A DNA stretch of 33,579 nucleotides, taken from Magnetococcales bacterium (lineage in GTDB: Bacteria; Pseudomonadota; Magnetococcia; Magnetococcales; UBA8363). Location of the stretch: NCBI GenBank assembly GCA_015228975.1, contig JADGCN010000023.1, positions 1-33,579 of the forward strand, written 5' to 3'. Positions 8,824 to 32,048 of the stretch are shown one piece after another. Each line of letters begins with the position of its first letter. Positions within the stretch are counted from its first letter, which is position 1. Below the pieces are notes generated by a model. It searched no databases, was not told where the DNA came from, and saw nothing but the letters and a program-made list of their open reading frames with translations. A program made the translations under genes and the position numbers.

Positions 8824-9044
8824 TGGTCTGAACAAAAGGGAAACAAATTACGGGATGTTTTTGTTAATTCCCCGGTGGCGAGGCTCACGTGGTTTAAAGA
8901 CACACGTATATTCCGCATAGCTCGCCCTTAAGAATCGTGGAGGGGGCCGTTCAGGTCGTGTTTCTTTTGTCGAATTGTCGAATAAAGACCCGTCGAAAAA
9001 GACCCTTGTGGTAGAACACTAAAAAATTAAGGAGAGAGTCTATT
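8824..9044 (+). promoter_or_regulatory. Long 5' leader of pckG with possible folded elements
   Basis: The region between the predicted promoter and pckG holds no convincing gene. It contains an outer stem GGCGAG (8877-8882) with CTCGCC (8921-8926), enclosing a second stem ACGTG (8887-8891) with CACGT (8903-8907). An earlier bulged hairpin is formed by GGGAA/ACAAA against TTTGT/TTCCC at about 8838-8871. The leader ends in a strong ribosome-binding site (AAGGAGAG near 9028-9037). I do not recognise a known riboswitch. A structured leader or small RNA is possible. Confidence 0.3.
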
Positions 9045-10823
9045 ATGAGTCCAAGCCAGAACAGCAAGCTGAATGCCTGGGTTGAGGAAATCCGTGCCAT
9101 GGTTCAACCCGACAAGGTTGAATGGTGTGATGGATCCAAGGCCGAATACGACCGCATGCTGCAAATTTTGGTCGAAGCCGGATTGGCCACCAAACTTGCC
9201 AAACGCCCCAACAGCTACCTGTTTCGTTCCGATCCCTCCGACGTGGCCCGCGTGGAAGATCGGACCTACATCTCCACCAAGAACAAACGCGATGCCGGTC
9301 CCACCAACAACTGGATCGATCCCGAACAACTCAAGACCACCATGCGCGGCCTGTACAACGGGTGCATGAAAGGGCGTACCATGTACGTGATCCCTTTCTC
9401 CATGGGTCCCATCGGTTCGGACATCGCCAAGATTGGCGTTCAGATCACCGATAGCGCCTACGTGGTCGCCAATATGCATATTATGACCCGCGTCGGTACC
9501 CGGGTTCTGGATATTTTGGGTGCCAATGGTCAGTTCATTCCTTGCTTGCATTCGGTCGGCAAGCCGTTGCAGCCCGGTCAGAAGGACAACGGTGTTTGGC
9601 CCTGCGCCCCCATTGAGAAAAAATACATCGCCCACTTCCCCGAGGAAAATCTGATCTGGTCGTATGGTTCGGGTTACGGCGGCAACGCGTTGCTGGGCAA
9701 AAAGTGTCTGGCGCTGCGTATCGCTTCCGCCATGGCTCACAAAGAGGGATGGATGGCGGAGCACATGCTGATCCTGCGCCTGACCAATCCCGAAGGTCGG
9801 AGGTTCCACATCGCCGCCGCGTTCCCCAGCGCCTGCGGTAAAACCAACCTGGCCATGCTGCAACCCCCCATCAAAGGTTGGAAAGCGGAATGTCTGGGTG
9901 ACGACATTGCCTGGATGAAGATCAAGGCGGATGGGCGTCTGTATGCCATCAATCCAGAAGCGGGCTTTTTTGGCGTGGCCCCGGGGACCAGCTACAAGTC
10001 CAATCCCATGGCCATGGACTCCATGAAAGAAAATGCCATCTTCACCAACTGCGTCCTGACCGACGATGGCGACGTGTGGTGGGAAGATATGGACAAGCCG
10101 TGCGATCACGGTATCGACTGGAAGGGTCGCGATTGGAAACCGGGCAAGGAACCCGGTGCCCACGGCAATGCGCGTTTCACCGCCCCTGCCAAGCAATGCC
10201 CGGTGATCTGTTCCGATTGGGAAAATCCGGAAGGGGTGCCCATCGATATCTTCATTTTCGGCGGACGCCGTACCAAAGTCATGCCGTTGGTGCACCAAGC
10301 CCGCAGTTGGGACCACGGGGTGTTCATGGGTGCCACGGCAGCTTCCGAACCGACAGCCGCCGCCCTCGACGTCTCGGCTACCCTGCGTCGCGATCCGATG
10401 GCCATGCTGCCTTTCTGCGGCTACAACGTCGGCGACTATTGGCAACATTGGTTCGAGATGGGTGACCGCCTGGGTGACAAGGCTCCGAAAATTTTCTATG
10501 TCAATTGGTTCCGCAAGAGCGATGCCGGCAAATTCTTGTGGCCCGGTTACGGCGACAACGCCCGTGTCCTCAAGTGGATGTGCGAGCGCGTTGAAGGCAA
10601 AGCGGGTGCCCGCGAGACCCCGTTGGGATTCATGCCCAATCCCGGTGATCTGGACCTCACCGGTTTGGATATCCCCAAGGAAAATCTGGAGCAGGTTCTC
10701 AAGGTGGACAACGAAGCCTTCAAAGCGGAGTTTGCCGATCTTGACGGCTGGATGGCGAAAATCGGCGAATATTTGCCCGAACGCATGAAAAAGCAGGTTG
10801 CTGAGTACAAGAGCCGTTTCTAG
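9045..10823 (+). CDS. pckG: Phosphoenolpyruvate carboxykinase (GTP)
   Basis: The 592-aa GTP-dependent PEPCK converts oxaloacetate and GTP to PEP, CO2 and GDP, the entry step of gluconeogenesis from TCA intermediates. The diagnostic P-loop with reactive cysteine, [13 protein letters not shown], has Cys264 and Lys266. Other family motifs include [22 protein letters not shown] (285-291), [14 protein letters not shown], the FIFGGRR loop, and [25 protein letters not shown]. Length is typical for the GTP class, which is unrelated in sequence detail to the ATP-type PckA common in proteobacteria. The start follows AAGGAGAG. The gene is flanked by its own promoter and a strong terminator, so it is probably monocistronic. 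Confidence 0.97.
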
Positions 10824-10897
10824 AACCTGTTTGCATTGGGACGACCCCTGTCCGCAGTGTTTGGGATGGGTTGCAGGTAGCAGCACTCTTTAAGCTC

Positions 10898-14905: not shown

Positions 14906-17398
14906 CTACGGCTGCTGCTTGACCTCCTCCAGGTACAACTTGGCAGCTTTATTGTCCGGATCTTTTTCCAGGATGTCCTGGAATACCAGGGCCGCTTCTT
15001 TGCTGTGACCCAATTCCGCATGCAGCATTCCCAAACGGGTTTCCGTTAACGTGTCCTTGGGCGCATGTTTCATGTAGTTGGTGTAGGTCACCAACGCCTC
15101 TTCACTGTACCCGTTCAAACGTTGCAGGTTGGCGTAGATGGGTATGAATACCTGGGACAATTGGGACAGTTTGCCGGCAGTGTACAGTGCATCCTGCAAT
15201 TCGGATCGTTTCAGATGGATGGCGAGCATGCATCGCAGGCTTTCATGGCGCAGACCATCCAGGGTGATTTGCTTGAAATGTTCCAGCGCCTCATCGTACG
15301 ACTCCCGGTGATCTGCAAGATAGCCCTGGATCAATAACAGGAATTGCTCTTTGTTGGGAATGGGGCTCTTTGCGATTCCATGCATGAAATTGGTCAGCTT
15401 CTCAAATTCTTTTTTATGCAGGAAGGATTGCGCCTTGATCCGTATGGCTTCCGGTGAGGCCAGATTGCGCTGACAGTGCGCCCGGTAATCGGTTTCCGTG
15501 GCGTCAAGCAAGGTTTGGTATTCCTGGAGCGCAGCGCGAAAAAGCTTGGCGACGGGCTCGGGTAAGGTTTCAACACTTAATTGACGTTTTTCGAGAAAAC
15601 ACAGGGCGCGTCCGGGTTGGCCATCGCTCTTCCATTGTTGGAAAATTGATTTAAAAGGGGGCTTTTCTTTTTCGGCATCACTGTTGGCTCGGATCCTCTG
15701 CCGTGCCAAGTCGATGACCTTGATGAGATCCACCGTGTTGTTGTGATAGATTTCATAATAATTCAGCCCCGCCCGCTCAACTTCCTGGTCGCTCAGAACC
15801 TTTTCTTTATCGGGACTGCCCAGTCGCAGGAAGCCTATGATGTTCCATTGTTTGACCAGTCGAGTTAACTCTCCATGGTCCGTATTGAGGGTTTCCTCAA
15901 TGGCATCCATGCGTAATTTATATTTATAATCCATCGGCTTGTTTTTACGACCAAACAATCCCTGGTTGCACTTCAAGGCTTCGCTGGTGAGTTTTTGAAT
16001 CGTGAGCAGTTCACTGCGTACCCGGAACAGTTCCGTTTCGACCATGGCGAAATGCTGTAATCGGTCTTCTCGCGTTTCCCGGGGTATCCTGTGCAAAAAG
16101 GTTTCTCTTGCGGGGATTTCCCGGGATTCCGGGACGATTTCCTCCCAGGGTACATGCTCCACATGCGCAATCTTGGCAGACCCCCTGGAGGGATTGCAGA
16201 CCCGACACCCACGTGATTTTCCCGTTTCCGCCAATTGACTGAGGGCCGGGATGGCATTGAACAAGTCGGCACTGGTTTCAGCTTTCCAACCGCCATTGGT
16301 TTCGACCCACAGGTCGCTACGATAGGCCGAAGGCCCGGTGCGGACTTCAAGACTTCCCGAGGCGTGCGTGAAACCTTCTTTGTTGAAACACAGGTCAAAG
16401 CCGCACAATATGACCTGGGAAAATCCCATGTGGACGGCGGAACCGAGGGCCTGATGGGAAACGGTGATACCCGGATACGAAGGATTTTCCGTGTTGAGCG
16501 GTGTTTTCCAGGGAAAGAGCGTTCCCATATACATGCTTTGGCCACACCACTGACCCAATAACCGGGAGTTGAGATGGTACATGTTGACCAGCAGGGATTC
16601 CTTGCCAAAGGCGAGGATATCCTTGCTCAGATGGAAAATGATCTCGTGGGGGTCGATGGCATAGATCAGGTCGGGGACTATCTTTTCACGCTTGAGTTGT
16701 CCGCCGATGCGGGCAACCGCCAGGACGATGATATCTTTCCGGTGGCTGCGAACCCACTCAAAGCTTTCATCGAGGGAAGGGCCACCGGCCATAAGAACAG
16801 CGGTCATTCTCTGGAATTTGTTATGCAGCACCGATACGGGCACACGATTGCCCGGCAAATTTTCCAATCCCCGTAACATGAAAATTTTGGAACCTATTTC
16901 TTGCCCAAGCTCAATCTCCGTCTGCCCAAATATTCTGTCAAACTCACCATTTAAATTAACATAATCTGGGTAGAAACCATCGATGACGCCCAGGGAGCGG
17001 ATGGCGATATTTTTACCGATATAATAATAATCTTTCATGGAAAAAGCAGAGGCCTTTTCTGGCCATTTCTCCACCGGGCAGATACTGACATGGGGCGGGA
17101 ATGTTTCCGGAAGGATTCCTTCGCGGCCCAAATAATCGATCATTTCTGGTAATTCCAGAAAAATGAACCGGGTGCCCTGGGGTGGTTTTTTGCCCAGTAT
17201 CCATTGCAATAACAATCCACCATCGGTACCGAGGATGGAGAACAGACACTCTTTGCCTTCAAACATGGCTCCATAATGGCGTTGATAAAAATTGTCCGAT
17301 CCAACTTGAGAAAAGGTCTCGCCATTGATGGAAGGGAGATAGCGTTCACCGAATTTGTTGGTTACAAACGGACCAAAAGTTTCTGAATGATTGCTCAA
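14906..17398 (-). CDS. Maf-type (DUF115) flagellin glycosyltransferase with C-terminal TPRs
   Basis: The product is about 830 aa. A helical N-terminal region (SETFGPFVTNKFGERYLPSING, ILGTDGGLLL) is followed by the DUF115/MAF_flag10 domain at about residues 190-400. This carries the typical AGGPSLDE nucleotide-sugar loop, IVLAVARIGGQL, PDLIYAIDPH and FDLCFNKEGFTHASG. The C-terminal third is helical with TPR-like repeats. Maf proteins transfer nonulosonic acids such as pseudaminic acid to flagellin. Start choice: the open frame can be read from a TTG at 17458 without a ribosome-binding site; the TTG at 17396-17398 has GAGGGTG 6 nt upstream and is preferred. A GTG at 17407 is less well placed. 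It lies 90 nt after the carbamoyltransferase. Confidence 0.85.
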   Translation of the reverse strand: MSNHSETFGPFVTNKFGERYLPSINGETFSQVGSDNFYQRHYGAMFEGKECLFSILGTDGGLLLQWILGKKPPQGTRFIFLELPEMIDYLGREGILPETFPPHVSICPVEKWPEKASAFSMKDYYYIGKNIAIRSLGVIDGFYPDYVNLNGEFDRIFGQTEIELGQEIGSKIFMLRGLENLPGNRVPVSVLHNKFQRMTAVLMAGGPSLDESFEWVRSHRKDIIVLAVARIGGQLKREKIVPDLIYAIDPHEIIFHLSKDILAFGKESLLVNMYHLNSRLLGQWCGQSMYMGTLFPWKTPLNTENPSYPGITVSHQALGSAVHMGFSQVILCGFDLCFNKEGFTHASGSLEVRTGPSAYRSDLWVETNGGWKAETSADLFNAIPALSQLAETGKSRGCRVCNPSRGSAKIAHVEHVPWEEIVPESREIPARETFLHRIPRETREDRLQHFAMVETELFRVRSELLTIQKLTSEALKCNQGLFGRKNKPMDYKYKLRMDAIEETLNTDHGELTRLVKQWNIIGFLRLGSPDKEKVLSDQEVERAGLNYYEIYHNNTVDLIKVIDLARQRIRANSDAEKEKPPFKSIFQQWKSDGQPGRALCFLEKRQLSVETLPEPVAKLFRAALQEYQTLLDATETDYRAHCQRNLASPEAIRIKAQSFLHKKEFEKLTNFMHGIAKSPIPNKEQFLLLIQGYLADHRESYDEALEHFKQITLDGLRHESLRCMLAIHLKRSELQDALYTAGKLSQLSQVFIPIYANLQRLNGYSEEALVTYTNYMKHAPKDTLTETRLGMLHAELGHSKEAALVFQDILEKDPDNKAAKLYLEEVKQQP

Positions 17399-17488
17399 GA
17401 CGATCACCCTCGGAAAAAAGTGGGGAGTGGGCGTGTACCAGGATCCGTATGCGGGCAAAAAAAGACGGCTGCTATTTTTTGCCGATTT

Positions 17489-19327
17489 TTAGTCCAATTC
17501 AAACCGATCTTTGTAATCTTTAAGGAGTTGGGGATTTTGGCATTCCTTTTTGAGGAAACAACGCCCAATCGCGAGGGTTTCAATTCCGGTACCCATGAAG
17601 CAATGAAAGGCATCTTCCGGGGAGCCGACAATGGGCTCTCCCCGGACATTGAAACTGGTATTGACAATGACCGGGCAGGCGGTGCGTTCCCGGAAGTGTT
17701 GTATCAGGGCGTGATAAAGGGGATTGGTTTCACGATGAACGGTCTGGATCCGGGCGGAATAGTCGACATGAGTGACTGCGGGTATGGTGGAACGGGGAAT
17801 GTTTAATTTATCAATGCCAAAGAGTTTCTGTTCCGCCGCAGTCATGGCGCGCCTCTGGGAGGGATGAACATCGTCCACCAGCAACATGTACGGGCTATCG
17901 GTATCCAGGTTGAACCAGTCCTGCATCTCCTCGCGCAATACCGAAGGGGCGAAAGGACGAAATGATTCGCGAAATTTGACTTTAAGGTTGAGCGTGGATT
18001 GCATGGTCGCTGAACGGGCATCGCCAAGAATGGAACGGGCCCCCAAAGCACGCGGACCGAACTCCATGCGCCCCTGGAACCATCCCAAGGCTTTTCCTTC
18101 GGTCAATGCCTGTACTGAAGCCGCAATCAGATCGCGTTCCTCCAATACCTCAAAGCAGGCACCGGCGGAGGTCAGACGCTGTTCGATCTCTTGCTGCGAG
18201 AATTCGGGCCCCAGATAGGCACCATTCATGGCATCAAGATGCCCGGACGGGGTGCGTTCGTGTCCCAGATGTCCGTGATAAGCTGCCAGAGCGGCTCCGA
18301 GGGCACCACCCGCATCTCCCGAGGCGGGTTGAATCCACAGGTTGGCAAAGTGTCCATCACGTAAAATTTTGCCATTGGCCACACAATTGAGAGCAACGCC
18401 TCCCGCCAAGCACAGGTTGGGGCTTGCGGTTTCCCGGGCCAGGGCGCGTGTCAAACGCAGCACCGCTTCTTCGATGACAACCTGAATGGAGGCTGCCAAA
18501 TCCATCTCTTTCTGGGTAATCGGTTCTTCCGGAGTACGCGGTGGACCGCCGAAAAGGTGATGGAATTTTTTGCCGGTCATGGTCAGACCGGTACAATAGT
18601 CAAAGTAGGAAATGTCCAGGCGGAAAGAACCATCCGCCTTCAGGTCGATGAGATGGTCAAAGATGGTTTGCGCAAAGCGGGGTTGGCCGTAGGGGGCGAG
18701 ACCCATCACTTTGTATTCGCCGGAGTTGACCTTGAAGCCGGTGTAATAGGTAAAGGCGGAGTAAAGCAGGCCAAGGGAGTGGGGGAAATGAATTTCTTTC
18801 AGAAGTTCCAACCGGTTGCCACGCCCCATCCCCATGGAGGTCGTTGCCCATTCGCCCACACCGTCCAGGGTCAGAACTGCGGCTTCTGCAAACGGAGAGG
18901 GAAAAAAGGCGCTGGCGGCATGGCTTTGGTGATGTTCGGCGAACAGCAGGCGGGATTCGTCGGAAAAAGCGTCATCCAGGCGTCGCAATTCCTGCAAAAG
19001 CATCTTTTTCAGGAATAACTTTTCCTTGATCCATACCAGAATGGCCATGCGAAACGAGGTGAACCCCCGGGGAGCGAAGGCCAGATAGGTTTCCAGCAAC
19101 CGTTCAAATTTTAAAAACGGCTTGTCGTAAAAAACAACGTGGTCGATCTTGGAAAGGGGAACCCCGGCGGCATCCAAGCAATAGCGTACCGCATGGACGG
19201 GAAAGCTCGGGTCGTGTTTGATACGGGTGAAGCGTTCCTCCTGGGCTGCGGCGACAATCGCCCCATCTCGGACCAAGGCTGCGGCACTATCGTGATAATA
19301 GGCGGAGATTCCAAGTATGCGCGCCAT
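17489..19327 (-). CDS. NodU/CmcH-type carbamoyltransferase
   Basis: The 612-aa O-carbamoyltransferase would use carbamoyl phosphate to carbamoylate a hydroxyl on a sugar or other small molecule. The N-terminal ASKHA/TsaD-like domain shows ILGISAYYHDSAAALVRDG (4-22), the metal-binding EHHQSHAASAFF (131-142), SGEYKVMGLAPYG (202-214) and LCLAGGVALNCVANGK (305-320). The C-terminal domain shows GWFQGRMEFGPRALGARSIL and FNVRGEPIV. Length is standard. It sits 7 nt after the DUF5989-like gene and upstream of the Maf glycosyltransferase, so the acceptor may be a flagellin-linked or surface glycan; this acceptor is inference. Confidence 0.93.
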   Translation of the reverse strand: MARILGISAYYHDSAAALVRDGAIVAAAQEERFTRIKHDPSFPVHAVRYCLDAAGVPLSKIDHVVFYDKPFLKFERLLETYLAFAPRGFTSFRMAILVWIKEKLFLKKMLLQELRRLDDAFSDESRLLFAEHHQSHAASAFFPSPFAEAAVLTLDGVGEWATTSMGMGRGNRLELLKEIHFPHSLGLLYSAFTYYTGFKVNSGEYKVMGLAPYGQPRFAQTIFDHLIDLKADGSFRLDISYFDYCTGLTMTGKKFHHLFGGPPRTPEEPITQKEMDLAASIQVVIEEAVLRLTRALARETASPNLCLAGGVALNCVANGKILRDGHFANLWIQPASGDAGGALGAALAAYHGHLGHERTPSGHLDAMNGAYLGPEFSQQEIEQRLTSAGACFEVLEERDLIAASVQALTEGKALGWFQGRMEFGPRALGARSILGDARSATMQSTLNLKVKFRESFRPFAPSVLREEMQDWFNLDTDSPYMLLVDDVHPSQRRAMTAAEQKLFGIDKLNIPRSTIPAVTHVDYSARIQTVHRETNPLYHALIQHFRERTACPVIVNTSFNVRGEPIVGSPEDAFHCFMGTGIETLAIGRCFLKKECQNPQLLKDYKDRFELD

Positions 19328-21603: not shown

Positions 21604-23433
21604 TTACAGCTTGGACAGTGCCGAGGTCAAGGCGTTGCCCTGACTGTTCATGCTGCTGACCAACTGCTCCAGATTGGCAAATTTTTTGTTCAACTGTGCC
21701 CGAACCTTATCTTCCCGTGCTTGTTCCCGCGTTATGGTGTCATCCAGGGATTTGAGTTGGTCTACAAGGCTTTGTTTGGAACCTCCAAGGGAGCCGGTGT
21801 TGTTGGTAATGCTTTTGAGCAATGTGTCCAAGCGGTAGGACAGACCAGCACTGTTGTTGGTACCGACTGCGGTCTGGGTGTTGGTGAACAGACTGGACAA
21901 GTTGGTGAAGTTGGTATTCAGGGCGGAATCAAGCTTGGTGCTGTCGAAGCTGACCTGACCGGTTTTTTGATCCGTCCTGAGACCGATCTCCGCCAAGATG
22001 GAAAATGGGCTCAACCTGTTTCCCGAAAGATCGCCGCTCGAAGTAGCCGTATTCAACTGCCCCCGTAATTGGGAGACAACGCTACGTGCCAAGGCCGATG
22101 CCTCTAGGGTTCCACCCTTGGTGGAGTTGTCGGCTATGAATTTAATGACATCGTTAAATGCCGAAGTGAAAGAATTCAGAGTCGTCTTAAGTGATGTATT
22201 GTCATTGGCCACAGTCACGGATACGGGTGTGTTGGCTGCGGTGACTTGCTTGAGTGACAGGGTGATGCCGGGCAAAACACTGGTCACCGTGTTGCTGGAG
22301 CTGTAAATATTGGTCAGGCCGTCTATCTTCAACTGGGCGTCCTGGCCAACGCTCGACTGGAATGCCCCCCAACTGGTTGCTGCGGTCGATTCCAACGTCG
22401 AGGCGGTGCCATTTCCATCCACGTTGCTGAAACCCACATTGACACTCAAATTAGTGATGGCAGTAGTGCCGTCCATGACCAGACGATTCTGGTAACCATC
22501 GTTGACGACACTAGCTTTGAGACCAGTCAGGTTCATGCTGTTGATCCGGGTCGCGATTCCTGCCAACGTATCCCCTGCAGTTACGCCAACGCCCGGAATC
22601 ATCCCAACGGCCGCATTGGCATAAGTGACTCCATTATAGGTGAATCCGAAACTCGTGATCGCGTTGACGGTTGCGCTGGAGCTGGTCATGGCGGTGGCGG
22701 TGCCCATTGCAACGGTATTGCCCGATGTCGCCGCAGTATCCCAAGTTTGGCCACCGGTCCAAGCCATGTTCATGACCAGATTCGTCAGACGCGTCGTATT
22801 GGTCGTGCCATCCGAATTACGGCTCCCGGCTCCCTGGTCCCTGGGGGTCAGGACCAAACGGTAGTTGGTACCGTCAAACAGGGTACTGGCACTGACGCCA
22901 GTTGAATTCGTGCCATAGTTGTAACTGCTGATTTTCGAGGCAATGGTCGATAGGGAATCCCCTGAGGCAATTGCAAAGTTGGCATTGGTGTAATTGGTCG
23001 TCGAACCATCGGTATTCATGAGGGTGAAGCTCAGGGTCGGCGCGGCAGAGAGCGTATCGGTCGAACTGGTGACACCCGCCGCAGACATCATCGTTTGGGA
23101 GCTGGCCAGACGTGAAATCTCAACACTGTGGCTGCCCGCAACTGCTGTGGACGAAGCCGTCACATCAAGATAAGTCGTATCACCGCTGGTTGCCGTGTGC
23201 GGCGACCAGGAGGCAACCGATTGCAAATTGGTCACCGTTGTATCAAGGGCGGCGAGTTTGGTACCCAGGTCGTTCAACGCCGCCTGCTGCGTGGTCAGGT
23301 TGCTTTTCTTCGTTTGCAGGGCGGTCATGCGCCGGGTTTCGACCGTCATCAACTGATCGACCATATTCGCCGGCAACCCGGTGGCCAACCCCCCGAAACT
23401 GATCGGGGTACTCGAAACGCTGGAAGTAGCCAT
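21604..23433 (-). CDS. fliD: Flagellar hook-associated protein 2 (filament cap)
   Basis: The 609-aa protein is the filament cap that inserts flagellin subunits at the tip. The N-terminal FliD domain reads ISFGGLATGLPANMVDQLMTVETRRMTALQTKKSNLTTQQAALNDLGTKLAALDT, and the C-terminal helical domain reads LDDTITREQAREDKVRAQLNKKFANLEQLVSSMNSQGNALTSALSKL. The middle is Ser/Thr/Asn-rich, as in surface-exposed FliD domains, and makes this version longer than the E. coli protein (468 aa). The ribosome-binding site AAGGGGAA precedes the ATG at 23431-23433. It lies 36 nt after a small unknown gene. Confidence 0.96.
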   Translation of the reverse strand: MATSSVSSTPISFGGLATGLPANMVDQLMTVETRRMTALQTKKSNLTTQQAALNDLGTKLAALDTTVTNLQSVASWSPHTATSGDTTYLDVTASSTAVAGSHSVEISRLASSQTMMSAAGVTSSTDTLSAAPTLSFTLMNTDGSTTNYTNANFAIASGDSLSTIASKISSYNYGTNSTGVSASTLFDGTNYRLVLTPRDQGAGSRNSDGTTNTTRLTNLVMNMAWTGGQTWDTAATSGNTVAMGTATAMTSSSATVNAITSFGFTYNGVTYANAAVGMIPGVGVTAGDTLAGIATRINSMNLTGLKASVVNDGYQNRLVMDGTTAITNLSVNVGFSNVDGNGTASTLESTAATSWGAFQSSVGQDAQLKIDGLTNIYSSSNTVTSVLPGITLSLKQVTAANTPVSVTVANDNTSLKTTLNSFTSAFNDVIKFIADNSTKGGTLEASALARSVVSQLRGQLNTATSSGDLSGNRLSPFSILAEIGLRTDQKTGQVSFDSTKLDSALNTNFTNLSSLFTNTQTAVGTNNSAGLSYRLDTLLKSITNNTGSLGGSKQSLVDQLKSLDDTITREQAREDKVRAQLNKKFANLEQLVSSMNSQGNALTSALSKL

Positions 23434-23836: not shown

Positions 23837-24682
23837 TTATCCGAGCAGCTTCAGGGCGAGCTGAGGTTGCTGATTGGCCTGGGCCAAAATGGCGGTTCCC
23901 GCTTGTTGCAAAATGGAATTGCGTGTCAGGTTGGCGGTTTCTGCCGCAATGTCCGCATCCATGATACGCGAACGTGCCGCCGACATGTTTTCCACCACAT
24001 TCGTCAGGTTGGAAACAACGGCCTGGAAGCGGTTTTGGATGGCACCCAGATTGGAGCGGACATTGGAAATGGCATCCAGGGCGGAGTCAATTTTGGCTAA
24101 CGTGGTACTGGCGTAGATTGAATCAACCCTGCCTGAATACGTTTTCACAGCCGTTCCCGACAGAATCCCCAGCTTTAGCGTGCTGATATTCATGGTCGAG
24201 ATGTTCATGGTAATCGTCTGGCCCGCATTGGTTCCAACCTGGAACGCAATTGTGGCCATGGATCCATTCAACACACCTCTGTTGTTGAACGTAACTTGGT
24301 TGGCGGTCCTCTGAATTTCCTGCAGGAGTTGCTTGACCTCCAGGTTAAGGGAATTACGGTCCGTGTTGGAGTTCGTCCCGTTGATGGCCTGCACCGCCAG
24401 TTCCCGAATCCGCTGCAAAGAATTGGTGTTTTCTTCCAGCGCCCCTTCGGCCACCTGCGCAAGGGAGATGCCATCATTGGCGTTGCGAATGGCTTGGGTC
24501 AGACCACGGACCTGGGAAGTCATCCGCTGAGAAATCGCCAACCCGGCGGCGTCATCCTTGGCGGAATTGATCCGGAGACCGGAGGCCAAGCGGGCAAAGC
24601 TGGTCCCCAGGGAATTGGTGGAATGATCAAGATGACGTCGAGTGTTGATAGAGGCAATGTTTGTGTTGATAAAAAGCGGCAT
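23837..24682 (-). CDS. fliC: Flagellin (short, 281 aa)
   Basis: This is the main filament subunit type. The N-terminal D0/D1 region is INTNIASINTRRHL, GTSFARLASGLRINSAKDDAAGLAIS, NDGISLAQVAEGALEENTNSLQRIRELAVQA. The C-terminal D1/D0 region is LGAIQNRFQAVVSNLTNVVENMSAARSRIMDADIAAETANLTRNSILQQAGTAILAQANQQPQLALKLLG. The variable middle is only about 50 residues, including a tandem TMNISTMNIST, so the subunit has essentially only D0/D1. It follows fliW across a 314-nt leader. Probable client of FliW, FliS and the Maf glycosyltransferase. Confidence 0.96.
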   Translation of the reverse strand: MPLFINTNIASINTRRHLDHSTNSLGTSFARLASGLRINSAKDDAAGLAISQRMTSQVRGLTQAIRNANDGISLAQVAEGALEENTNSLQRIRELAVQAINGTNSNTDRNSLNLEVKQLLQEIQRTANQVTFNNRGVLNGSMATIAFQVGTNAGQTITMNISTMNISTLKLGILSGTAVKTYSGRVDSIYASTTLAKIDSALDAISNVRSNLGAIQNRFQAVVSNLTNVVENMSAARSRIMDADIAAETANLTRNSILQQAGTAILAQANQQPQLALKLLG

Positions 24683-24996: not shown

Positions 24997-25491
24997 TTAG
25001 ACAGCTATCTTTTTTTTCGTTTGCGGTTTCATTTCCTGCATCGCCTGCTCCCGGGCCTGCGCTTGAAACTCTTTGGGTATCAAGGGCTGTCGGGAGGAAT
25101 ACTGGCCTAACAAAATCTGTTTGCCTTTGCGGGTCTCAATGTTGACGATCACGGGACCTGCAAGGTTGGTGCGCATCTCTTCGGGATGTCCCTCCGGGAT
25201 GGTCACCAAAGTGAACATCTCCGCGTCTTCCGATTTCTTCAGGCCAATGGCGGCGGCATCCTCATCTGAAATCTCAAACTCCAGATCGCAAAAGAAGTCG
25301 AACGGATTGACGACGATGAAGGAAATCTCCGGCTCATCCACCGACTGCAGCCAAAAGAACGAAGAATCATCCGAGTAGGGGAACATGATGTAGCGCCTAC
25401 TCAAGGGGAAACCCAACAAGCCATCCTCCAACCGGATTACGTCCGCAGAGTCAAAGCTCAGGGTTCCAAAACGGGTGCCATGAACCTCCAT
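24997..25491 (-). CDS. fliW: Flagellar assembly factor FliW (first copy)
   Basis: FliW of about 164 aa binds flagellin and relieves CsrA repression of flagellin translation. It shows the family core: TRFGTLSFDSADVIRLEDGLLGFPLSRRYIMFPY, SFFWLQSVDEPEISFIVVNPFDFFCDLEF, FTLVTIPEG, MRTNLAGPVIVN, GKQILLGQYSSRQPLIP. The Lys/Gln-rich C-terminal tail is unique to this copy. Two adjacent ATGs (25494 and 25491) follow AGGGAG; the second is chosen because the paralogue starts MEIHGTRFG. The frame is open to 25518 but that start lacks support. It precedes the short flagellin. No csrA gene is in the window. Confidence 0.92.
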   Translation of the reverse strand: MEVHGTRFGTLSFDSADVIRLEDGLLGFPLSRRYIMFPYSDDSSFFWLQSVDEPEISFIVVNPFDFFCDLEFEISDEDAAAIGLKKSEDAEMFTLVTIPEGHPEEMRTNLAGPVIVNIETRKGKQILLGQYSSRQPLIPKEFQAQAREQAMQEMKPQTKKKIAV

Positions 25492-26043
25492 CATCGTCTT
25501 CTCCCTGTCGTTGGGCATCTCGCATTGCGTTTCCGGTTGGTGATACCCAACCCCGACCGGATGGTTTCGAGAATTCTGTTTAGTTAAACCACTGGGTTCT
25601 TATAAAACAATCTGTTCAATTCACTAATCAATAACTCTATTTTCGTCATCCCCGCCCCCGATTGAAGCATTCGAGGGCAGGCTTCAGCGGGGATCCAGAG
25701 CCCGTCATTCCCGCGAAGGCGGGAACCCCGAATGCCTGAATCGGGGGGAACCTTCCTATTCTCTCCTGGCTTTCTGGATTCCCGCTTTCGCGGGAATGAC
25801 GCTGGAAAACTACATGCCCTGTGTTGCTTGTGGTTAAATACTTTCTAACTGAAATGACGCTGTATTATCCGCTTACTGAGGTGTTCCGATGCGTTGTATC
25901 TGATAATGCATTTCGTGTGCCATTTATATCTTCTTGGTCTTTCTTGGCTTTTCCCTTGTTCTTTCCGTCCTCTGGTGCCGATTCTGGGAAATTGTTGCCT
26001 ACTTGGGTCCGGCAATTTTTGTTACTGTGTACCTTTCAGGCTG
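25492..26043. other. Intergenic region between the giant flagellin and fliW
   Basis: The roughly 600-nt gap holds the palindromic repeat at 25645-25800. The flanks, 25501-25644 and 25801-26043, are comparatively AT-rich. I see no convincing gene: the plus-strand frames here are low-complexity Phe/Leu/Ser runs without ribosome-binding sites. No clear sigma-54 or sigma-28 promoter for fliW was found. Confidence 0.5.
25645..25800. repeat. Palindromic dispersed repeat (REP/MITE-like), copy 1
   Basis: The element is built from inverted modules: GTCATCCCCGCCCCCGATTG (25645-25664), an inverted GTCATTCCCGCGAAGGCGGGAA (25694-25715), an inverted CCGAATGCCTGAATCGGGGG segment (about 25728-25747), and a terminal palindrome core TTCCCGCTTTCGCGGGAA with flanks at 25773-25800. 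The terminal 28 nt are identical to 32461-32488. It lies wholly between genes. Confidence 0.9.
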
Positions 26044-26108
26044 TCAGGCCAGGGGATCCGCTTGCCTGGGAGTGGGGTTAGGCAAGCGAATCTTCCTTTA
26101 TGGCCTGA
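26044..26108 (-). terminator. Nested hairpin just past the giant flagellin gene
   Basis: An inner perfect stem CGCTTGCCT (26059-26067) / AGGCAAGCG (26080-26088) is enclosed by a second stem TCAGGCC (26044-26050) / GGCCTGA (26102-26108). It begins 5 nt beyond the stop codon of the 775-aa flagellin. No T-tract follows on the minus strand, so it may act as a transcript-end stabiliser or a factor-dependent terminator. Confidence 0.5.
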
Positions 26109-26112
26109 GACC

Positions 26113-28440
26113 TCATCTGAGCAGTTGCAGAGCCAGTTGAGGTTGTTGGTTGCACTGAGCGAGAACTGCTGTTCCAGCTTGTTGCATGATGGTCAGCTTG
26201 GTCATGTTGGCTGTTTCCGCGGCGATATCGGTGTCCAAAATGCGCGAGCGGGCAGCACTGACGTTTTCCACCACGTTGGAAAGGTTGTTGATATTCGAGG
26301 TGAACCGATTCTGAATGGCACCCAGCTCGGCCCGTGTCGAGGAGACCCGATCAATGGCCTGCTTGACGATGGAGATCATCCGGGCGGCCGCATCCTGTCC
26401 GGCCAACGGCGGGTTGGATGCATTGGTCGTTGGTGGATCGAACGGCAGTGTCGGATCGGTGGGGATCGTCGCACCGGTAATATCAATCAGGGGTGACGGG
26501 GGAAACTTGGTCTGTTTAGAGGTATCTACCAGCCAGGAGGGGACGGTGATATATTCCCCCCCTTTCGGTTGCGAGGCGGCACGAACCGCGGAATCTCGCG
26601 CCCCCAAGACCAGGGCCATTTGCTTGGCGGATGCCTGGGCCGATGCGACCGTTCCGCTGGGTTTGGCTGCTGACAAACCGGCGGCGGCTATGATTTTGGC
26701 TTCCGAGACGGTCAATTGCTTGGATTGATCGGCTGCGACTGCCGCCTGGGCGATGGATTCAATATCCTTGTTCTCATTGACGGCACCACGGAATGCCTGG
26801 ATCACCAGGATGAGATTGCCCACCGGGACATCCTTGACCGTTGTACCGTTGGTCACCGCATTGTCGATGACGGTGGTGGGACCGGAGGCGTTGAATATGG
26901 CTCCGTTGGTTGCCCCCGCCAAAGCGGTGTATTGAGCGGGAACTGCGTCGGAATCGGTGTAGGTGGTGCGAATGGCATCGTAGGTGGCTGCTGCAATGAC
27001 CCGAGCCTGGTCCGAGTTAATGGTAGAATCAGCGGGCTTGACTACGGTTTCCGCAACCCAGGCGGCAATAACCGCCGACTTTTGGTTGCCACCACCCGTG
27101 AGTTTGGTCACACCATCGTTGTTGCGTCCCCGGGCGGACAGTACCGCTGCCGCCAAACCTTTGGCATTATTGCCGGTTATGCGGGGGTCGGCACCGGTGA
27201 TGGCCGCAGCCATGGCCGTGACATCCAGGTTGCTGTCGATGCCATTGTTGATGGCGGTCGTCAGTCCGGCTACCACAGGGGCGAATCCAAGACCGGTGAC
27301 AATGGCCGATGTGGTATTGGCAACGTTGGCGACCAATGTTTGCAAGTCAACGTTCACACCCACGGCATTGATGGCCACGGCAGAGCCGAAGTTCGACGCA
27401 TCAATGGCTGCCGAGGCGATGGTTTGGGCATTGGCGGTTGAGAGTTTCGGATTAGCCGCCTGGATGTCCGTGGTCAGGTCCGTAAGGCTCTTGCCGGCAG
27501 CGATACCCTTGCTGGCTGCCGTTTGAATCTTGGCATCGGGACTCGTCGCCAACGTCGCCGGTACCAGAGCAGTTGTTGCAATGTTGACGGCCTTGTTGAC
27601 CGCAGTATCCCGGTCCATCAGATTCGTTTCGAGGGCATTGACAACACCCGTGGTGCTGACGACCTCGCTATTGATCGAAGCTGCCACAGTCGTGGTGTTT
27701 TGATCGTCAATGGCGTTCAACAGGTTCGTCGCTACGGTGCTAGAATCGATCGTCCAGGGCGACGGGCCTTGGGTATTGGCGTTGGCCAGGGTATTGATCA
27801 TTTTGGCCGATGAGGAGCTGAACAGCTTGGAACCAGCCAACTGTGTCGTCGGGGCCTTGATGGTCATACCCGTGATCAAAGGGTTCTTGACACTGACCAG
27901 ATTGTTGGGATCCGCCGGCTGGGGTTGCGCCAGCAAGGTCGCGGCACGGGCATCCGCCAGGGTGACGACCACGGTTTGACTCTCCTGGGCACCGATCTGG
28001 AATACCAGCGGTTTGGTCTTGCCATTCAGCATGGGCCAACCGTTGAATTCGGTCTGATTGGCAACCCGCTCGATTTCCGACAGGAGTTGCGACACCTCCT
28101 GTTGCAAACTGGCGCGATCCTGATCACTGTTGGTGGCGTTGGCCGCTTGTACCGACAGTTCGTTGATGCGTTGCAACATATCGGCGTGTTCCTGCAGGGC
28201 GCCTTCCGCCACCTGGGATACGGAGATCCCATCGTTGGCATTGCGCACCGCTTGGGACAAGCCGCGAATCTGCGAGGTCATGCGATTGCTGATGGCAAGG
28301 CCTGCGGCATCATCTCCCGCCGTGTTGATGCGGACGCCGGATGAGAGCCTTGCGAATACTTTGCCCAGTTCCCCAGACGACTTCAACATGTTGCGTTGCG
28401 CGTTGATGGAGGCCAGGTTGGTGTTCAGATAAATTGGCAT
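26113..28440 (-). CDS. Giant flagellin (775 aa) with about 500-residue Ala-rich insertion
   Basis: The ends are clear flagellin: residues 1-140 (LNTNLASINAQRNMLKSSGE, FARLSSGVRINTAGDDAAGLAISNRMTSQ, VAEGALQEHADMLQRINELSVQAANATNS) and about 690-775 (GAIQNRFTSNINNLSNVVENVSAARSRILDTDIAAETANMTK, then a QQPQLALQLLR end). Between them lies a roughly 500-residue surface domain rich in Ala, Thr, Asn and Asp, with a recurring helical motif near 322-347, 406-436, 458-490 and 559-592. Cys763 lies in the D0 helix, where the short flagellin has Ala. AAGGAA precedes the ATG, and fliW ends 38 nt upstream. It is a probable filament protein with a large exposed domain; function of the insert is unknown. Confidence 0.93.
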   Translation of the reverse strand: MPIYLNTNLASINAQRNMLKSSGELGKVFARLSSGVRINTAGDDAAGLAISNRMTSQIRGLSQAVRNANDGISVSQVAEGALQEHADMLQRINELSVQAANATNSDQDRASLQQEVSQLLSEIERVANQTEFNGWPMLNGKTKPLVFQIGAQESQTVVVTLADARAATLLAQPQPADPNNLVSVKNPLITGMTIKAPTTQLAGSKLFSSSSAKMINTLANANTQGPSPWTIDSSTVATNLLNAIDDQNTTTVAASINSEVVSTTGVVNALETNLMDRDTAVNKAVNIATTALVPATLATSPDAKIQTAASKGIAAGKSLTDLTTDIQAANPKLSTANAQTIASAAIDASNFGSAVAINAVGVNVDLQTLVANVANTTSAIVTGLGFAPVVAGLTTAINNGIDSNLDVTAMAAAITGADPRITGNNAKGLAAAVLSARGRNNDGVTKLTGGGNQKSAVIAAWVAETVVKPADSTINSDQARVIAAATYDAIRTTYTDSDAVPAQYTALAGATNGAIFNASGPTTVIDNAVTNGTTVKDVPVGNLILVIQAFRGAVNENKDIESIAQAAVAADQSKQLTVSEAKIIAAAGLSAAKPSGTVASAQASAKQMALVLGARDSAVRAASQPKGGEYITVPSWLVDTSKQTKFPPSPLIDITGATIPTDPTLPFDPPTTNASNPPLAGQDAAARMISIVKQAIDRVSSTRAELGAIQNRFTSNINNLSNVVENVSAARSRILDTDIAAETANMTKLTIMQQAGTAVLAQCNQQPQLALQLLR

Positions 28441-28478: not shown

Positions 28479-29018
28479 TCAACCGGCTGCGGCAACCTTC
28501 AGCGATCTGTTTTTGTCCGTCTGACGCGAACGACGCCGCGCACCCTTGTTGACCGGTTTTTTCCTGTCGGATTCATTCAGATATCTTTCACGCAATACCT
28601 TCGGGATGAGGGGCTGGCGCGGAGAAAATTCTTTAATGAGTATCTGTTTGCCCTTCCGATTGACGGTGTTGACCACCACGGGACCCGCAAGATTGGTGCG
28701 CATTTCTTCAGGCCGTCCCTCGGGTATCGTCACCAGCGTGAAAACTTCCACATCTTCGCCCCGTTCCAACCCCAACTGTTCGGTGTCTTCATCCTGGATG
28801 GCGAACTCCAGGTCGGCGAAGAAATCGAAAGGATTGACCACGATGAAAGCAATTTCCGGTTCATCCACCGATTGCAGCCAGAAAAATGAGGAATCCTGAC
28901 CGTAAGGGAACAACAAGAACCTGTTGCTCAGGGGAAATCCCAACAATCCATCCCCGATGGTGATCACTTCGTTTTCCTCGAACTCCAGTACCCCAAACCG
29001 GGTTCCATGAATCTCCAT
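28479..29018 (-). CDS. fliW: Flagellar assembly factor FliW (second copy)
   Basis: This 179-aa FliW starts MEIHGTRFGVLEFEENEVIT. It shares nearly all conserved blocks with the other copy (GLLGFPLSNRFLLFPY, SFFWLQSVDEPEI, FIVVNPFDFFADLEF, FTLVTIPEGRPEEMRTNLAGPVVVN, RQPLIPK) but has a strongly basic C-terminal tail (RKKPVNKGARRRSRQTDKNRSLK). It lies 24 nt after flgL and 38 nt before the giant flagellin, so it likely regulates that flagellin. GGAGTGGAG precedes the ATG. The basic tail suggests a possible nucleic-acid contact; that is inference. Confidence 0.94.
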   Translation of the reverse strand: MEIHGTRFGVLEFEENEVITIGDGLLGFPLSNRFLLFPYGQDSSFFWLQSVDEPEIAFIVVNPFDFFADLEFAIQDEDTEQLGLERGEDVEVFTLVTIPEGRPEEMRTNLAGPVVVNTVNRKGKQILIKEFSPRQPLIPKVLRERYLNESDRKKPVNKGARRRSRQTDKNRSLKVAAAG

Positions 29019-30263: not shown

Positions 30264-32048
30264 CTAAACCATGGAGATCAGGGATTGCATCAACTCGTCG
30301 GCGATGCTGACCATTTTGCTGGAAGCTTGAAAAGCCCGTTGGTATTTCAGGAGATCCGTCAACTCTTCCTCCAGAGACACACCCGAAACCGAACTGCGCA
30401 AATTGGAGATGAAATCCTGTGACGATTTTTGCGCGGTCAGGCTGTCTTTGTTCTGACTGACCAGGGAACCCAAATCACCCGTGACTTCGGCATAATGATT
30501 GGTCAGGGTGGCGTTCTGCCCGTCGATGGTGAACTTCGAGGTGCGTATGTTGCCCAGGGCAATGGCACCTTTGGCGTTGGCATCGTCAAACGTGACCGCA
30601 CCGTTGCTCACCGTGAGTTGGGCGCTGCCGAGTTGCTTGGAGTCGTCGAGCAACGTTTGGTTGACATGGATGTCTTCCGCACTCCGGCCACCGAAAATGG
30701 CGCCGATACCCAGGGCAGCCAAAATGCCACTCGAATCACTGGCCACGCCGAACACCCCACCCGCTTTTTTGGCACTGATCTGCAAATATTGCTGATCGCC
30801 CTCGGTGGCAAACGATGCATTGACAGTGCCGGATTGATTGATGGCTTTGGCAATGTCAACAATGGACATGTCCCGTGTGATGGCAATCGGTTGTGAAAGG
30901 GTCAGGTTGTCGGTGGTATCCCCGGAGGCGAAGGTGATAGATCCGTCCACGACCCGCGCCATACCCTTGGGAGTGTCTTTGTAGTTGGGATCTTTGCTGT
31001 TGGTCACCACATTCTTGATCGCCGGGTATTGACCTTTGACAGGGGTGGTCAAATCTTGCCCCAGTTCAAATATCCCCGTCTGCGATTGGTACATGGTTTG
31101 ACTGACCGTCTGGCTGCTGACCCGGTTGACCTGCCAGCGCAATTCGTCCGCAAGGGTGTTCAACTTGGTCATGACGCCGTTTTGGCCATGGATGATCTGG
31201 TCACGGATCTCCAGCAAACCGCCCAGTTTGCCACCGCGAATGTGATCGCTGTCGCCATACTCACGGCTGTTGATGGTGATCCCTTGAAAGCCTTCGGCAT
31301 TGACCTTGGGACTGCGGGTCAAGGTGGCGGCGTAAACCTCATCGGCAATCGTTTGTTGGCCCCGCGAGGTCATGATCTTCAAACCATCCTGCGCCGTGGG
31401 CAATGTTTGGATGTCGATGATCTTGCCCAGGTCCAGAACCATCTGGCTGCGTTGATCCTTGAGGTCCAGGGCCGGGTTGGAATTTTCATTGGCAACAATG
31501 GTCTTGTTGATGTCCCGGATCGCTTTCAGACGGGTATTGACATCATCCAGAGTGGCGGTGATTTCCTTGTCAATCGGCAGGGTGATGTCGCCCAACGACT
31601 TTTGCATCTTTTGAATCGTCTGGGCCAGAGCATTGGCTTGGGCCACAAAATCTTCACGCCCTACGGGATTGGTGGGATTGCTGGTCAGGGCATCGGCCTT
31701 GGCATAAAAGGCTTCCAATTGTTTGGAGAGTCCAGAATCGTCCAAGTCATTGAACACTTGTTCGACCATGCCGAGATATTGATCTCGGGTTTCCAAACGT
31801 CCCAGTTCACCAGTTCCCAGTTGTTGGCGGCGATCAACCAGTTGGTCGATTTGCCGGGTGATTTCTTCCATTCTGACGCCGGAGCCACCGGGATCCTGCG
31901 AGTTCCCCGGGACCCCTTCCTGCTGGACGGTCTGGCGGGAGTACCCCGGGGTGTTGACGTTGCTGATGTTGTGCGAAACCGTGTGCAACGACCCCTGGGA
32001 GACGAGAATCCCTTGCTTGGAGATGTTCAGCAGGCTGTTGAGAGACAT
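30264..32048 (-). CDS. flgK: Flagellar hook-associated protein 1
   Basis: The 594-aa first junction protein between hook and filament begins with the rod/hook-type start SLNSLLNISKQGILVSQGSLHTVSHNISNVNTPGYSRQTV and ends with SGVSLEEELTDLLKYQRAFQASSKMVSIADELMQSLISMV, the FlgK C-terminal signature. The middle is variable and surface-exposed. AAGGAAAAGG precedes the ATG. It is the first gene of the run flgK-flgL-fliW-giant flagellin, with a strong sigma-54-type promoter 60 nt upstream. Confidence 0.96.
   Translation of the reverse strand: MSLNSLLNISKQGILVSQGSLHTVSHNISNVNTPGYSRQTVQQEGVPGNSQDPGGSGVRMEEITRQIDQLVDRRQQLGTGELGRLETRDQYLGMVEQVFNDLDDSGLSKQLEAFYAKADALTSNPTNPVGREDFVAQANALAQTIQKMQKSLGDITLPIDKEITATLDDVNTRLKAIRDINKTIVANENSNPALDLKDQRSQMVLDLGKIIDIQTLPTAQDGLKIMTSRGQQTIADEVYAATLTRSPKVNAEGFQGITINSREYGDSDHIRGGKLGGLLEIRDQIIHGQNGVMTKLNTLADELRWQVNRVSSQTVSQTMYQSQTGIFELGQDLTTPVKGQYPAIKNVVTNSKDPNYKDTPKGMARVVDGSITFASGDTTDNLTLSQPIAITRDMSIVDIAKAINQSGTVNASFATEGDQQYLQISAKKAGGVFGVASDSSGILAALGIGAIFGGRSAEDIHVNQTLLDDSKQLGSAQLTVSNGAVTFDDANAKGAIALGNIRTSKFTIDGQNATLTNHYAEVTGDLGSLVSQNKDSLTAQKSSQDFISNLRSSVSGVSLEEELTDLLKYQRAFQASSKMVSIADELMQSLISMV

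What the first reader, a model, noticed from the sequence alone, without database searches (positions are those of the whole stretch)
26113..28440. Giant flagellin with a ~500-residue Ala-rich exposed domain carrying a degenerate repeated motif
The 775-aa protein keeps normal flagellin ends but inserts about 500 residues where the neighbouring flagellin has about 50. Inside, a motif recurs about four times (around residues 322-347, 406-436, 458-490, 559-592): a helix, then A(x)nD/N-P-like turn, then a helix with the pattern AxxIAaAxxxA, e.g. NAQTIASAAIDA, NAKGLAAAVLSA, QARVIAAATYDA, EAKIIAAAGLSA. This looks like an internally duplicated fold grafted onto the filament surface. It could be an adhesive, sheath-contacting or enzymatic decoration.
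Basis: partly seen in the sequence, partly recalled or inferred. Interest (0 to 1): 0.75.

Follow-up and report, generated by a model that had tools for sequence, protein, structure and literature searches.

The report
Large flagellin with repeated outer units
A bacterium related to the magnetic cocci has a gene for an oversized version of the protein that builds its swimming tail, with an extra outer part made of repeated units that is probably a surface coat; big flagellins of this sort are known elsewhere, but these particular units matched no catalogued family.

Summary
The 775-aa flagellin lies on the minus strand (26113-28440), with standard flagellin ends and 547 residues between them, against 53 in its neighbour. 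The four motif copies are real: a profile of units from other genomes finds the window's three upstream copies, and 0 of 2000 shuffles reach it. They are cores of a ~100-residue unit. Over 34 relatives the insert is a fixed base, a variable middle (79-463 aa), a fixed last unit and a fixed return segment. 31 of 48 genomes held for the order (Magnetococcales) carry it, and 0 of 350 others sampled in the phylum. In 29 of 31 carriers the locus reads flgK-flgL-fliW-LARGE-fliW-fliC-fliD; contig ends cut the other two. 11 of 14 non-carrier loci have one fliW and one ordinary fliC. In two genomes FlgK holds one copy of the unit. No PDB sequence match and no consistent Pfam or NCBIfam match. AlphaFold was inconclusive (pLDDT 37 and 47). 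Most likely a surface layer on the filament, perhaps at its base; this is inferred. Giant flagellins with duplicated outer regions are published, so: new variant of a known kind.

The parts
26113..28440 (-). Large flagellin gene, 775 aa
28006..28440 (-). Residues 1-145: flagellin N-terminal core (D0/D1); 145 aa in all 34 aligned members, mean 78% identity to window
   Evidence: Pfam Flagellin_N
27733..28005 (-). Residues 146-236: constant N-side base of the insert (91-95 aa in 34 members, mean 56% identity)
27373..27609 (-). Unit copy 1, residues 278-356
   Evidence: 13.1 bits
27094..27261 (-). Unit copy 2 (core), residues 394-449
   Evidence: 9.1 bits
26935..27057 (-). Unit copy 3 (partial core), residues 462-502
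   Evidence: 9.7 bits
26581..26880 (-). Last unit, residues 521-620, the conserved copy
   Evidence: 118.0 bits; 122.8 bits, (the window row is part of that profile)
26386..26550 (-). Residues 631-685: conserved Pro-rich return segment (48-60 aa in 34 members, mean 69% identity)
   Evidence: invariant positions (29 inserts)
26116..26385 (-). Residues 686-775: flagellin C-terminal core
   Evidence: Pfam Flagellin_C
28479..29018 (-). Upstream FliW, 38 bp before the large flagellin
   Evidence: Pfam FliW E 2.8e-35; gap; 'up' FliW group
24997..25518 (-). Downstream FliW of the ordinary flagellin
   Evidence: Pfam FliW E 3.8e-35; 'down' FliW group
23837..24682 (-). Ordinary flagellin, 281 aa
29043..30242 (-). 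FlgL, same gene run (24 bp before fliW)
   Evidence: Pfam Flagellin_N only; named FlgL from its place between FlgK and FliW; gap
30264..32048 (-). FlgK, first gene of the run
   Evidence: Pfam FlgK_D1
21604..23433 (-). FliD filament cap
   Evidence: Pfam FliD_N, FliD_C

Best explanation
This is the window's member of a large-flagellin family found here only in one order. Ordinary D0/D1 ends let it be secreted and built into the filament (inferred from the domains). Its exposed part is a constant base (146-236 and 631-685) carrying a run of ~100-residue units; the last is conserved and the number of upstream units differs between lineages (shown). Most likely the units form an outer-domain layer on the filament surface, held together by contacts between units of neighbouring subunits, thickening and stiffening the filament (inferred). 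Its place behind flgK-flgL-fliW, close-packed in most carriers, suggests that it is made with the junction proteins and may build the hook-proximal part of the filament, with the ordinary flagellins further out (inferred, weaker). The FliW next to it is probably its own homeostasis partner (inferred from gene order and tree).
For: Flagellin_N and Flagellin_C intact. Units real and homologous across the family. Fixed base, last unit and return with a variable middle; Spearman 0.85 between insert length and detected unit count over 34 inserts (rows are related and many are in the profile). In a quick D0/D1 tree of 77 rows the 30 large flagellins form one branch (SH-aLRT 100). Gene order kept in 29 of 31 carriers, the other two cut by contig ends; median gaps 22, 25 and 42 bp up to the large gene, then 318 bp (29-31 loci). 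One unit inside FlgK in two genomes, in the stretch between FlgK_D1 and the C-terminal domain, which suggests that the unit works as a surface module on axial proteins in general. Precedents: giant flagellins with duplicated outer regions and thick filaments (PMC6248924, sections 14 and 15 and passages read); flagellin outer domains that dimerise or tetramerise into sheaths or screw-like surfaces (PMC8931119, abstract and outline); a second flagellin enriched near the motor in Shewanella putrefaciens (PMC6299084, abstract and outline).
Against: No usable structure: mean pLDDT 37.0 for the whole protein, 46.9 for the last unit, so fold and surface contacts are unproven. No expression or filament data. 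A sigma-28-like motif (recalled consensus) reached the cut-off in 13 of 105 gaps longer than 40 bp, 12 of them before fliD and none in the 19 such fliW-LARGE gaps; the region before flgK was examined in 5 loci only. In 7 of 30 loci the gap after the large gene is 50 bp or less and the gap before it 68-139 bp, so it is not everywhere the end of a tight run. The FlgK copy was found in 2 of 31 carriers.
Confidence: 0.55

Rival explanations
1. Sheath- or bundle-contacting decoration: the units are spacers or ligands between neighbouring flagella in a bundle, or contact a bundle sheath.
For: Strain MO-1 of this order has sheathed bundles of 7 flagella and 24 fibrils with a sheath of a >350 kDa glycoprotein (PMC7175107, passages). 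The window's nearest named relative is a Magnetococcales MAG.
Against: The genome that I take for strain MC-1 (G018, one contig of 4,719,581 bases; identification recalled from its size) has no unit, although the review says that MC-1 seems to share that architecture. Strain IT-1 showed no sheath and no Sap gene (PMC5088516, passages). The sheath gene was not searched for here.
Confidence: 0.15
2. Adhesin or ligand-binding decoration, possibly calcium-dependent: the helix-AD.S..LT..EA-helix motif resembles an EF-hand or dockerin loop.
For: Counted as a 12-residue loop over 36 units: Asp at position 3 in 35, Leu or Ile at position 8 in 36, Ser or Thr at position 9 in 34, Glu or Asp at position 12 in 18.
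Against: Position 1 is Asp in only 4 of 36 units; no EF-hand or dockerin model among the 20 Pfam families listed for the 36 units at E 1. A T-x-x-E helix cap would explain part of the pattern (inference).
Confidence: 0.12
3. Hypervariable surface under phage, grazer or other escape, with no mechanical role; unit number drifts.
For: The middle segment differs most in length and sequence (79-463 aa, mean 33% identity to window).
Against: The base, last unit and return segment are conserved in length and sequence, and the gene keeps its place with a FliW on each side in the 29 complete loci.
Confidence: 0.12
4. Enzymatic flagellin like flagellinolysin.
For: Precedent exists (PMC5595980, search listing with start of abstract only). 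Weak hits of single units to enzyme families: kasugamycin N-acetyltransferase in 4 of 36 (best E 0.0055), GTP1_OBG in 1 of 36 (E 0.001).
Against: No enzyme family in the window insert at E 0.1 or in the window's last unit; the weak hits point to unrelated families and to few members.
Confidence: 0.03

Closest known systems
Giant flagellins of Bermanella marisrubri and Oleibacter marinus (tandem DE regions; PMC6248924)
   Same: Normal D0/D1 ends and a large exposed insert enlarged by tandem duplication of an internal region
   Different: The paper calls flagellins above 1000 aa giant and above 800 aa large; here 775 aa, family 578-961 aa. The paper finds the DE region in Pseudomonas and Legionella flagellins, whereas this insert and unit match no PDB chain by sequence. 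Here up to 6 detected copies, a FliW of its own, and a copy in FlgK in two genomes
Flagellins with outer-domain sheaths or screw-like surfaces (E. coli H7 and H6, Achromobacter, Sinorhizobium meliloti; PMC8931119, abstract)
   Same: Exposed domains that would cover the filament surface
   Different: Oligomerisation here is inferred only; no PDB sequence match of the insert profile
Multi-flagellin sets of MO-1 and MC-1 (14 and 15 genes; PMC7175107, passages)
   Same: Same order; many flagellin genes; a flgKL-fliW-fliC-fliD cluster
   Different: The unit-bearing large flagellin is absent from the genome taken for MC-1 and from the 16 other non-carrier genomes held for the order
Flagellinolysins (PMC5595980, listing only)
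   Same: Extra domain in the exposed region of a flagellin
   Different: No peptidase domain found in the window insert

Membership tests
Bacterial flagellin (FliC) | N- and C-terminal flagellin helical regions | tested here: met
   PF00669 E 1.1e-43, PF00700 E 2.4e-25
Bacterial flagellin (FliC) | Assembles into the filament | not testable with these tools
   needs proteomics or cryo-EM
Giant flagellin (PMC6248924) | More than 1000 aa | tested here: not met
   775 aa; family 578-961 aa over 34 members trimmed to a likely start
Giant flagellin (PMC6248924) | Internal tandem duplication in the exposed region | tested here: met
Giant flagellin (PMC6248924) | Duplicated region homologous to the DE region | tested here: inconclusive
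   No match of insert (E 1) or unit (E 10) profile to any PDB chain, a set that holds the 'B-type flagellin' chains; the DE model itself was not available
EF-hand / dockerin | Asp at loop position 1 | tested here: not met
   Asp in 4 of 36 units; no EF-hand or dockerin among the listed Pfam hits. The defining position is recalled
Flagellinolysin | Metallopeptidase domain in the insert | tested here: not met
   No Pfam family in the window insert at E 0.1
Outer-domain-sheath flagellin | Outer domains dimerise or tetramerise on the filament | not testable with these tools
   No confident model

The most novel reading that the evidence does not exclude
The unit is a self-associating surface module that has moved between axial proteins: arrays of it on the large flagellin, and a single copy on the junction protein FlgK in one lineage, form one continuous coat that begins at the hook-filament junction, and the number of units sets the thickness and stiffness of the filament base.
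Probability: 0.22. Interest if true: 0.7.

Novelty: new variant of a known kind. Interest (0 to 1): 0.48.

Why it matters
Why flagellins become large, and why members of this order keep so many of them, is open. This family offers a graded series (1 to 6 detected units), mostly at one conserved gene position, a FliW next to each of two flagellins, and one lineage in which the same unit sits on FlgK. That makes 'does unit number set filament thickness, and where along the filament?' testable. I saw no description of it in the listings of seven literature searches (the top 2 to 20 papers of each were listed, open-licence papers only); the many unlisted papers were not looked at.

Tried and rejected
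Single-sequence self-alignment for the repeat: not significant. Whether the first half, second half and tail of the unit are copies of each other: profile-profile comparison found nothing. A Foldseek search of the second model gave nothing better than E 2.7 and is not used. An alignment with copy 3 (A5) placed that copy wrongly and was dropped; an alignment with the short flagellins (A2) spread their ends into the insert and was not folded. Viral contigs: 19 stretches matched a pattern, none was confirmed as a relative. FlgL of nine carrier loci is also longer, but by a different sequence. EF-hand membership rejected.

Rows left out: A1 holds 29 of 34 inserts (near-duplicates L061, L064, L067, L068, L070 out). 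The profiles leave out those and L041, L067 and L075 (2 of 34) had no last copy by the search pattern and were not scanned, L075 gave no unit. A4 holds 36 of the 44 unit copies listed, which itself left out L041, L044, L047, L061, L063, L064, L067, L068, L070. Trees leave out L047, L061, L064, L067, L070. The tree holds very long branches (L053_other, L065_down) and the downstream ordinary flagellins do not form one branch in it (4 changes), so the duplication history of the flagellins is not settled.

Full report
What is there. The 775-residue protein is encoded on the minus strand at 26113..28440. Its ends are those of a normal flagellin (Pfam Flagellin_N 6-141, Flagellin_C 689-774), with 547 residues between them; the neighbouring 281-aa flagellin has 53. 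The window is a whole contig of an unnamed 3.75-Mb genome (75.9% complete) with flagellin-like matches on several other contigs; only this gene matches the insert. The nearest named record, 94% identical over the insert, is the Magnetococcales metagenome-assembled genome HA3dbin1, which PMC6783814 counts among uncultivated freshwater Magnetococcales (passages).

Is the repeat real? From the window alone it is not significant (score 76; 10 of 100 shuffles reach it), and no direct repeat of 24 nt or more shows at DNA level. Relatives settle it. A profile trained only on the last copy was scanned over the region upstream of that copy in 32 of 34 inserts: 22 matches of 8 bits or more in 10 members (some of them near-duplicates), against 0 in the reversed regions and 0 in 20 rounds of shuffles; at 5 bits, 31 in 18 members against 1 reversed and a shuffle mean of 0.25. 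The window itself scores only 4.8 and 6.5 bits by that profile. A fuller unit profile without the window and its close kin finds the window's three upstream copies at residues 278-356, 394-449 and 462-502 with 13.1, 9.1 and 9.7 bits; 0 of 2000 shuffles reach the best or the summed score. In the window the upstream ones have drifted far; in relatives such as L054, L058 and L072 they are plain.

Architecture. Over 34 aligned members the cores are constant in length (145 aa; 84-90 aa), the N-side base is 91-95 aa, the last unit 112-126 aa and the return segment 48-60 aa; the middle runs from 79 to 463 aa. Detected units (6 bits or more) number 1 to 6 and follow insert length (Spearman 0.85; the rows are related and many are in the profile, so the p-value is not to be taken literally).

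Distribution and gene order. The insert profile matches 31 of 48 genomes held for the order, in 6 of 17 genera. The unit profile matches 31 of 398 genomes sampled in the phylum; these are the same 31, and none of the 350 genomes outside the order matches. In 29 of the 31 carriers the locus reads flgK-flgL-fliW-LARGE-fliW-fliC-fliD (L053 has two fliC in a row; in L062 flgK runs to the contig end); in the other two (L043, L063) a contig end cuts it. Among the 17 genomes of the order without a match, 14 gave an flgL locus: 11 read flgK-flgL-fliW-fliC-fliD with one fliW and one ordinary flagellin, in L088 no flagellin was found between fliW and fliD, and L076 and L081 are cut. In a quick FliW tree 24 of 26 upstream copies and 24 of 25 downstream copies each fall in one group (SH-aLRT 91 and 93, both under the 95 mark). 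In a quick flagellin-core tree the 30 large flagellins form one branch (100), but the downstream ordinary flagellins do not. An old duplication of a fliW-fliC pair with both pairs kept is the simplest reading of the gene order; the trees support it for FliW and leave it open for the flagellins. Four genomes have a second large flagellin elsewhere (L046, L050, L056, L068).

The unit in FlgK. Before any FlgK row was used, the insert profile matched FlgK of G023 (E 7.5e-5) and the unit profile matched FlgK of G023 and G039 (E 6.4e-5 and 1.4e-4); both are 686 residues in open frame. The alignment shows about 96 extra residues (53 and 43) after positions 384 and 393 of the window's 634-residue FlgK frame, that is about 344 and 353 of the 594-aa protein, between FlgK_D1 (93-315) and the C-terminal domain (554-593). 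The FlgK copy scores 183 against the second-last unit of L058's large flagellin; 2000 shuffles averaged 48 and reached at most 82. Its four best matches are second-last units of large flagellins of the same genus (L058, L072, L074, L055; its own genome ranks fourth), so it was probably copied from such a unit.

What it is not. The window insert has no Pfam match at E 0.1, and the insert profile no PDB chain at E 1. The unit profile has no PDB chain at E 10. Of 36 units scanned singly, weak hits fall on 20 Pfam families at E 1 (best: GTP1_OBG E 0.001 in one unit; DUF732 in 3) and 11 NCBIfam families at E 0.1 (most: kasugamycin N-acetyltransferase in 4, best E 0.0055); the window's own unit has none. 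The motif resembles an EF-hand loop, but position 1 is Asp in only 4 of 36.

Structure. Both are low in confidence (mean pLDDT 37.0 and 46.9). Each motif copy is drawn as helix-loop-helix and the last unit as all helical; I treat this as a hint only.

How it most likely works. The ends show a protein that can be built into the filament, which puts the insert on the outside (established for flagellins). Repeated, conserved, length-graded units there are best read as outer domains forming a surface layer. The published parallel is the giant flagellins of B. marisrubri and O. marinus, with a tandemly duplicated exposed region and thick filaments (PMC6248924, sections 14 and 15 read). That the gene follows flgK-flgL-fliW with short gaps (medians 22, 25 and 42 bp, then 318 bp) and that FlgK can carry the unit suggest a role near the hook-filament junction; this is the weaker step. 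The spacing is not universal: in L060, L064, L065, L069, L070, L071 and L073 the gap before the gene is 68-139 bp and the one after it 50 bp or less. No sigma-28-like motif was found in the 19 fliW-LARGE gaps longer than 40 bp; 12 of the 13 sites found lie before fliD.

Verdict. Real, conserved, and a new variant of a known kind. The unexpected points are a unit without a detected relative outside the order, its copy-number series mostly at one gene position, and its presence in FlgK of one lineage.

Noticed in passing
window 14906-17458 (-) and 17489-19327 (-): A protein with Pfam MptE-like (PF01973, a family that I recall as covering motility-associated glycosylation proteins) next to a carbamoyltransferase, near the flagellar genes; possible flagellin glycosylation genes.
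   Followed up: no
L055 and L067, FlgK: FlgK of G023 and G039 carries one ~96-residue copy of the large flagellin's unit.
   Followed up: yes
L055, L060, L064, L065, L067, L069, L070, L071, L073, FlgL: FlgL in these nine carrier loci has an extra segment of 87-185 residues after position 177 of the window's 406-residue FlgL frame, unlike the unit, with a recurring VNG..Q and LDLGNGVTF pattern that appears twice in L069.
   Followed up: partly
L046, L050, L056, L068: Four genomes have a second large flagellin with none of the other reference flagellar genes found beside it in the fetched region; the four form one branch (SH-aLRT 94) inside the large-flagellin clade although two are from family f1 and two from f7.
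   Followed up: partly
window 26059-26088: An 11-pair inverted repeat about 25 bases downstream of the large flagellin's stop, in a 594-bp gap; terminator-like sites in the region are no more frequent than in shuffles (16 against 16.3).
   Followed up: no
window 9027-10886 (-) and 9045-10823 (+): Two long open frames (619 and 592 aa) on opposite strands of the same stretch; the minus one has no Pfam match at E 0.001, the plus one was not scanned.
   Followed up: no
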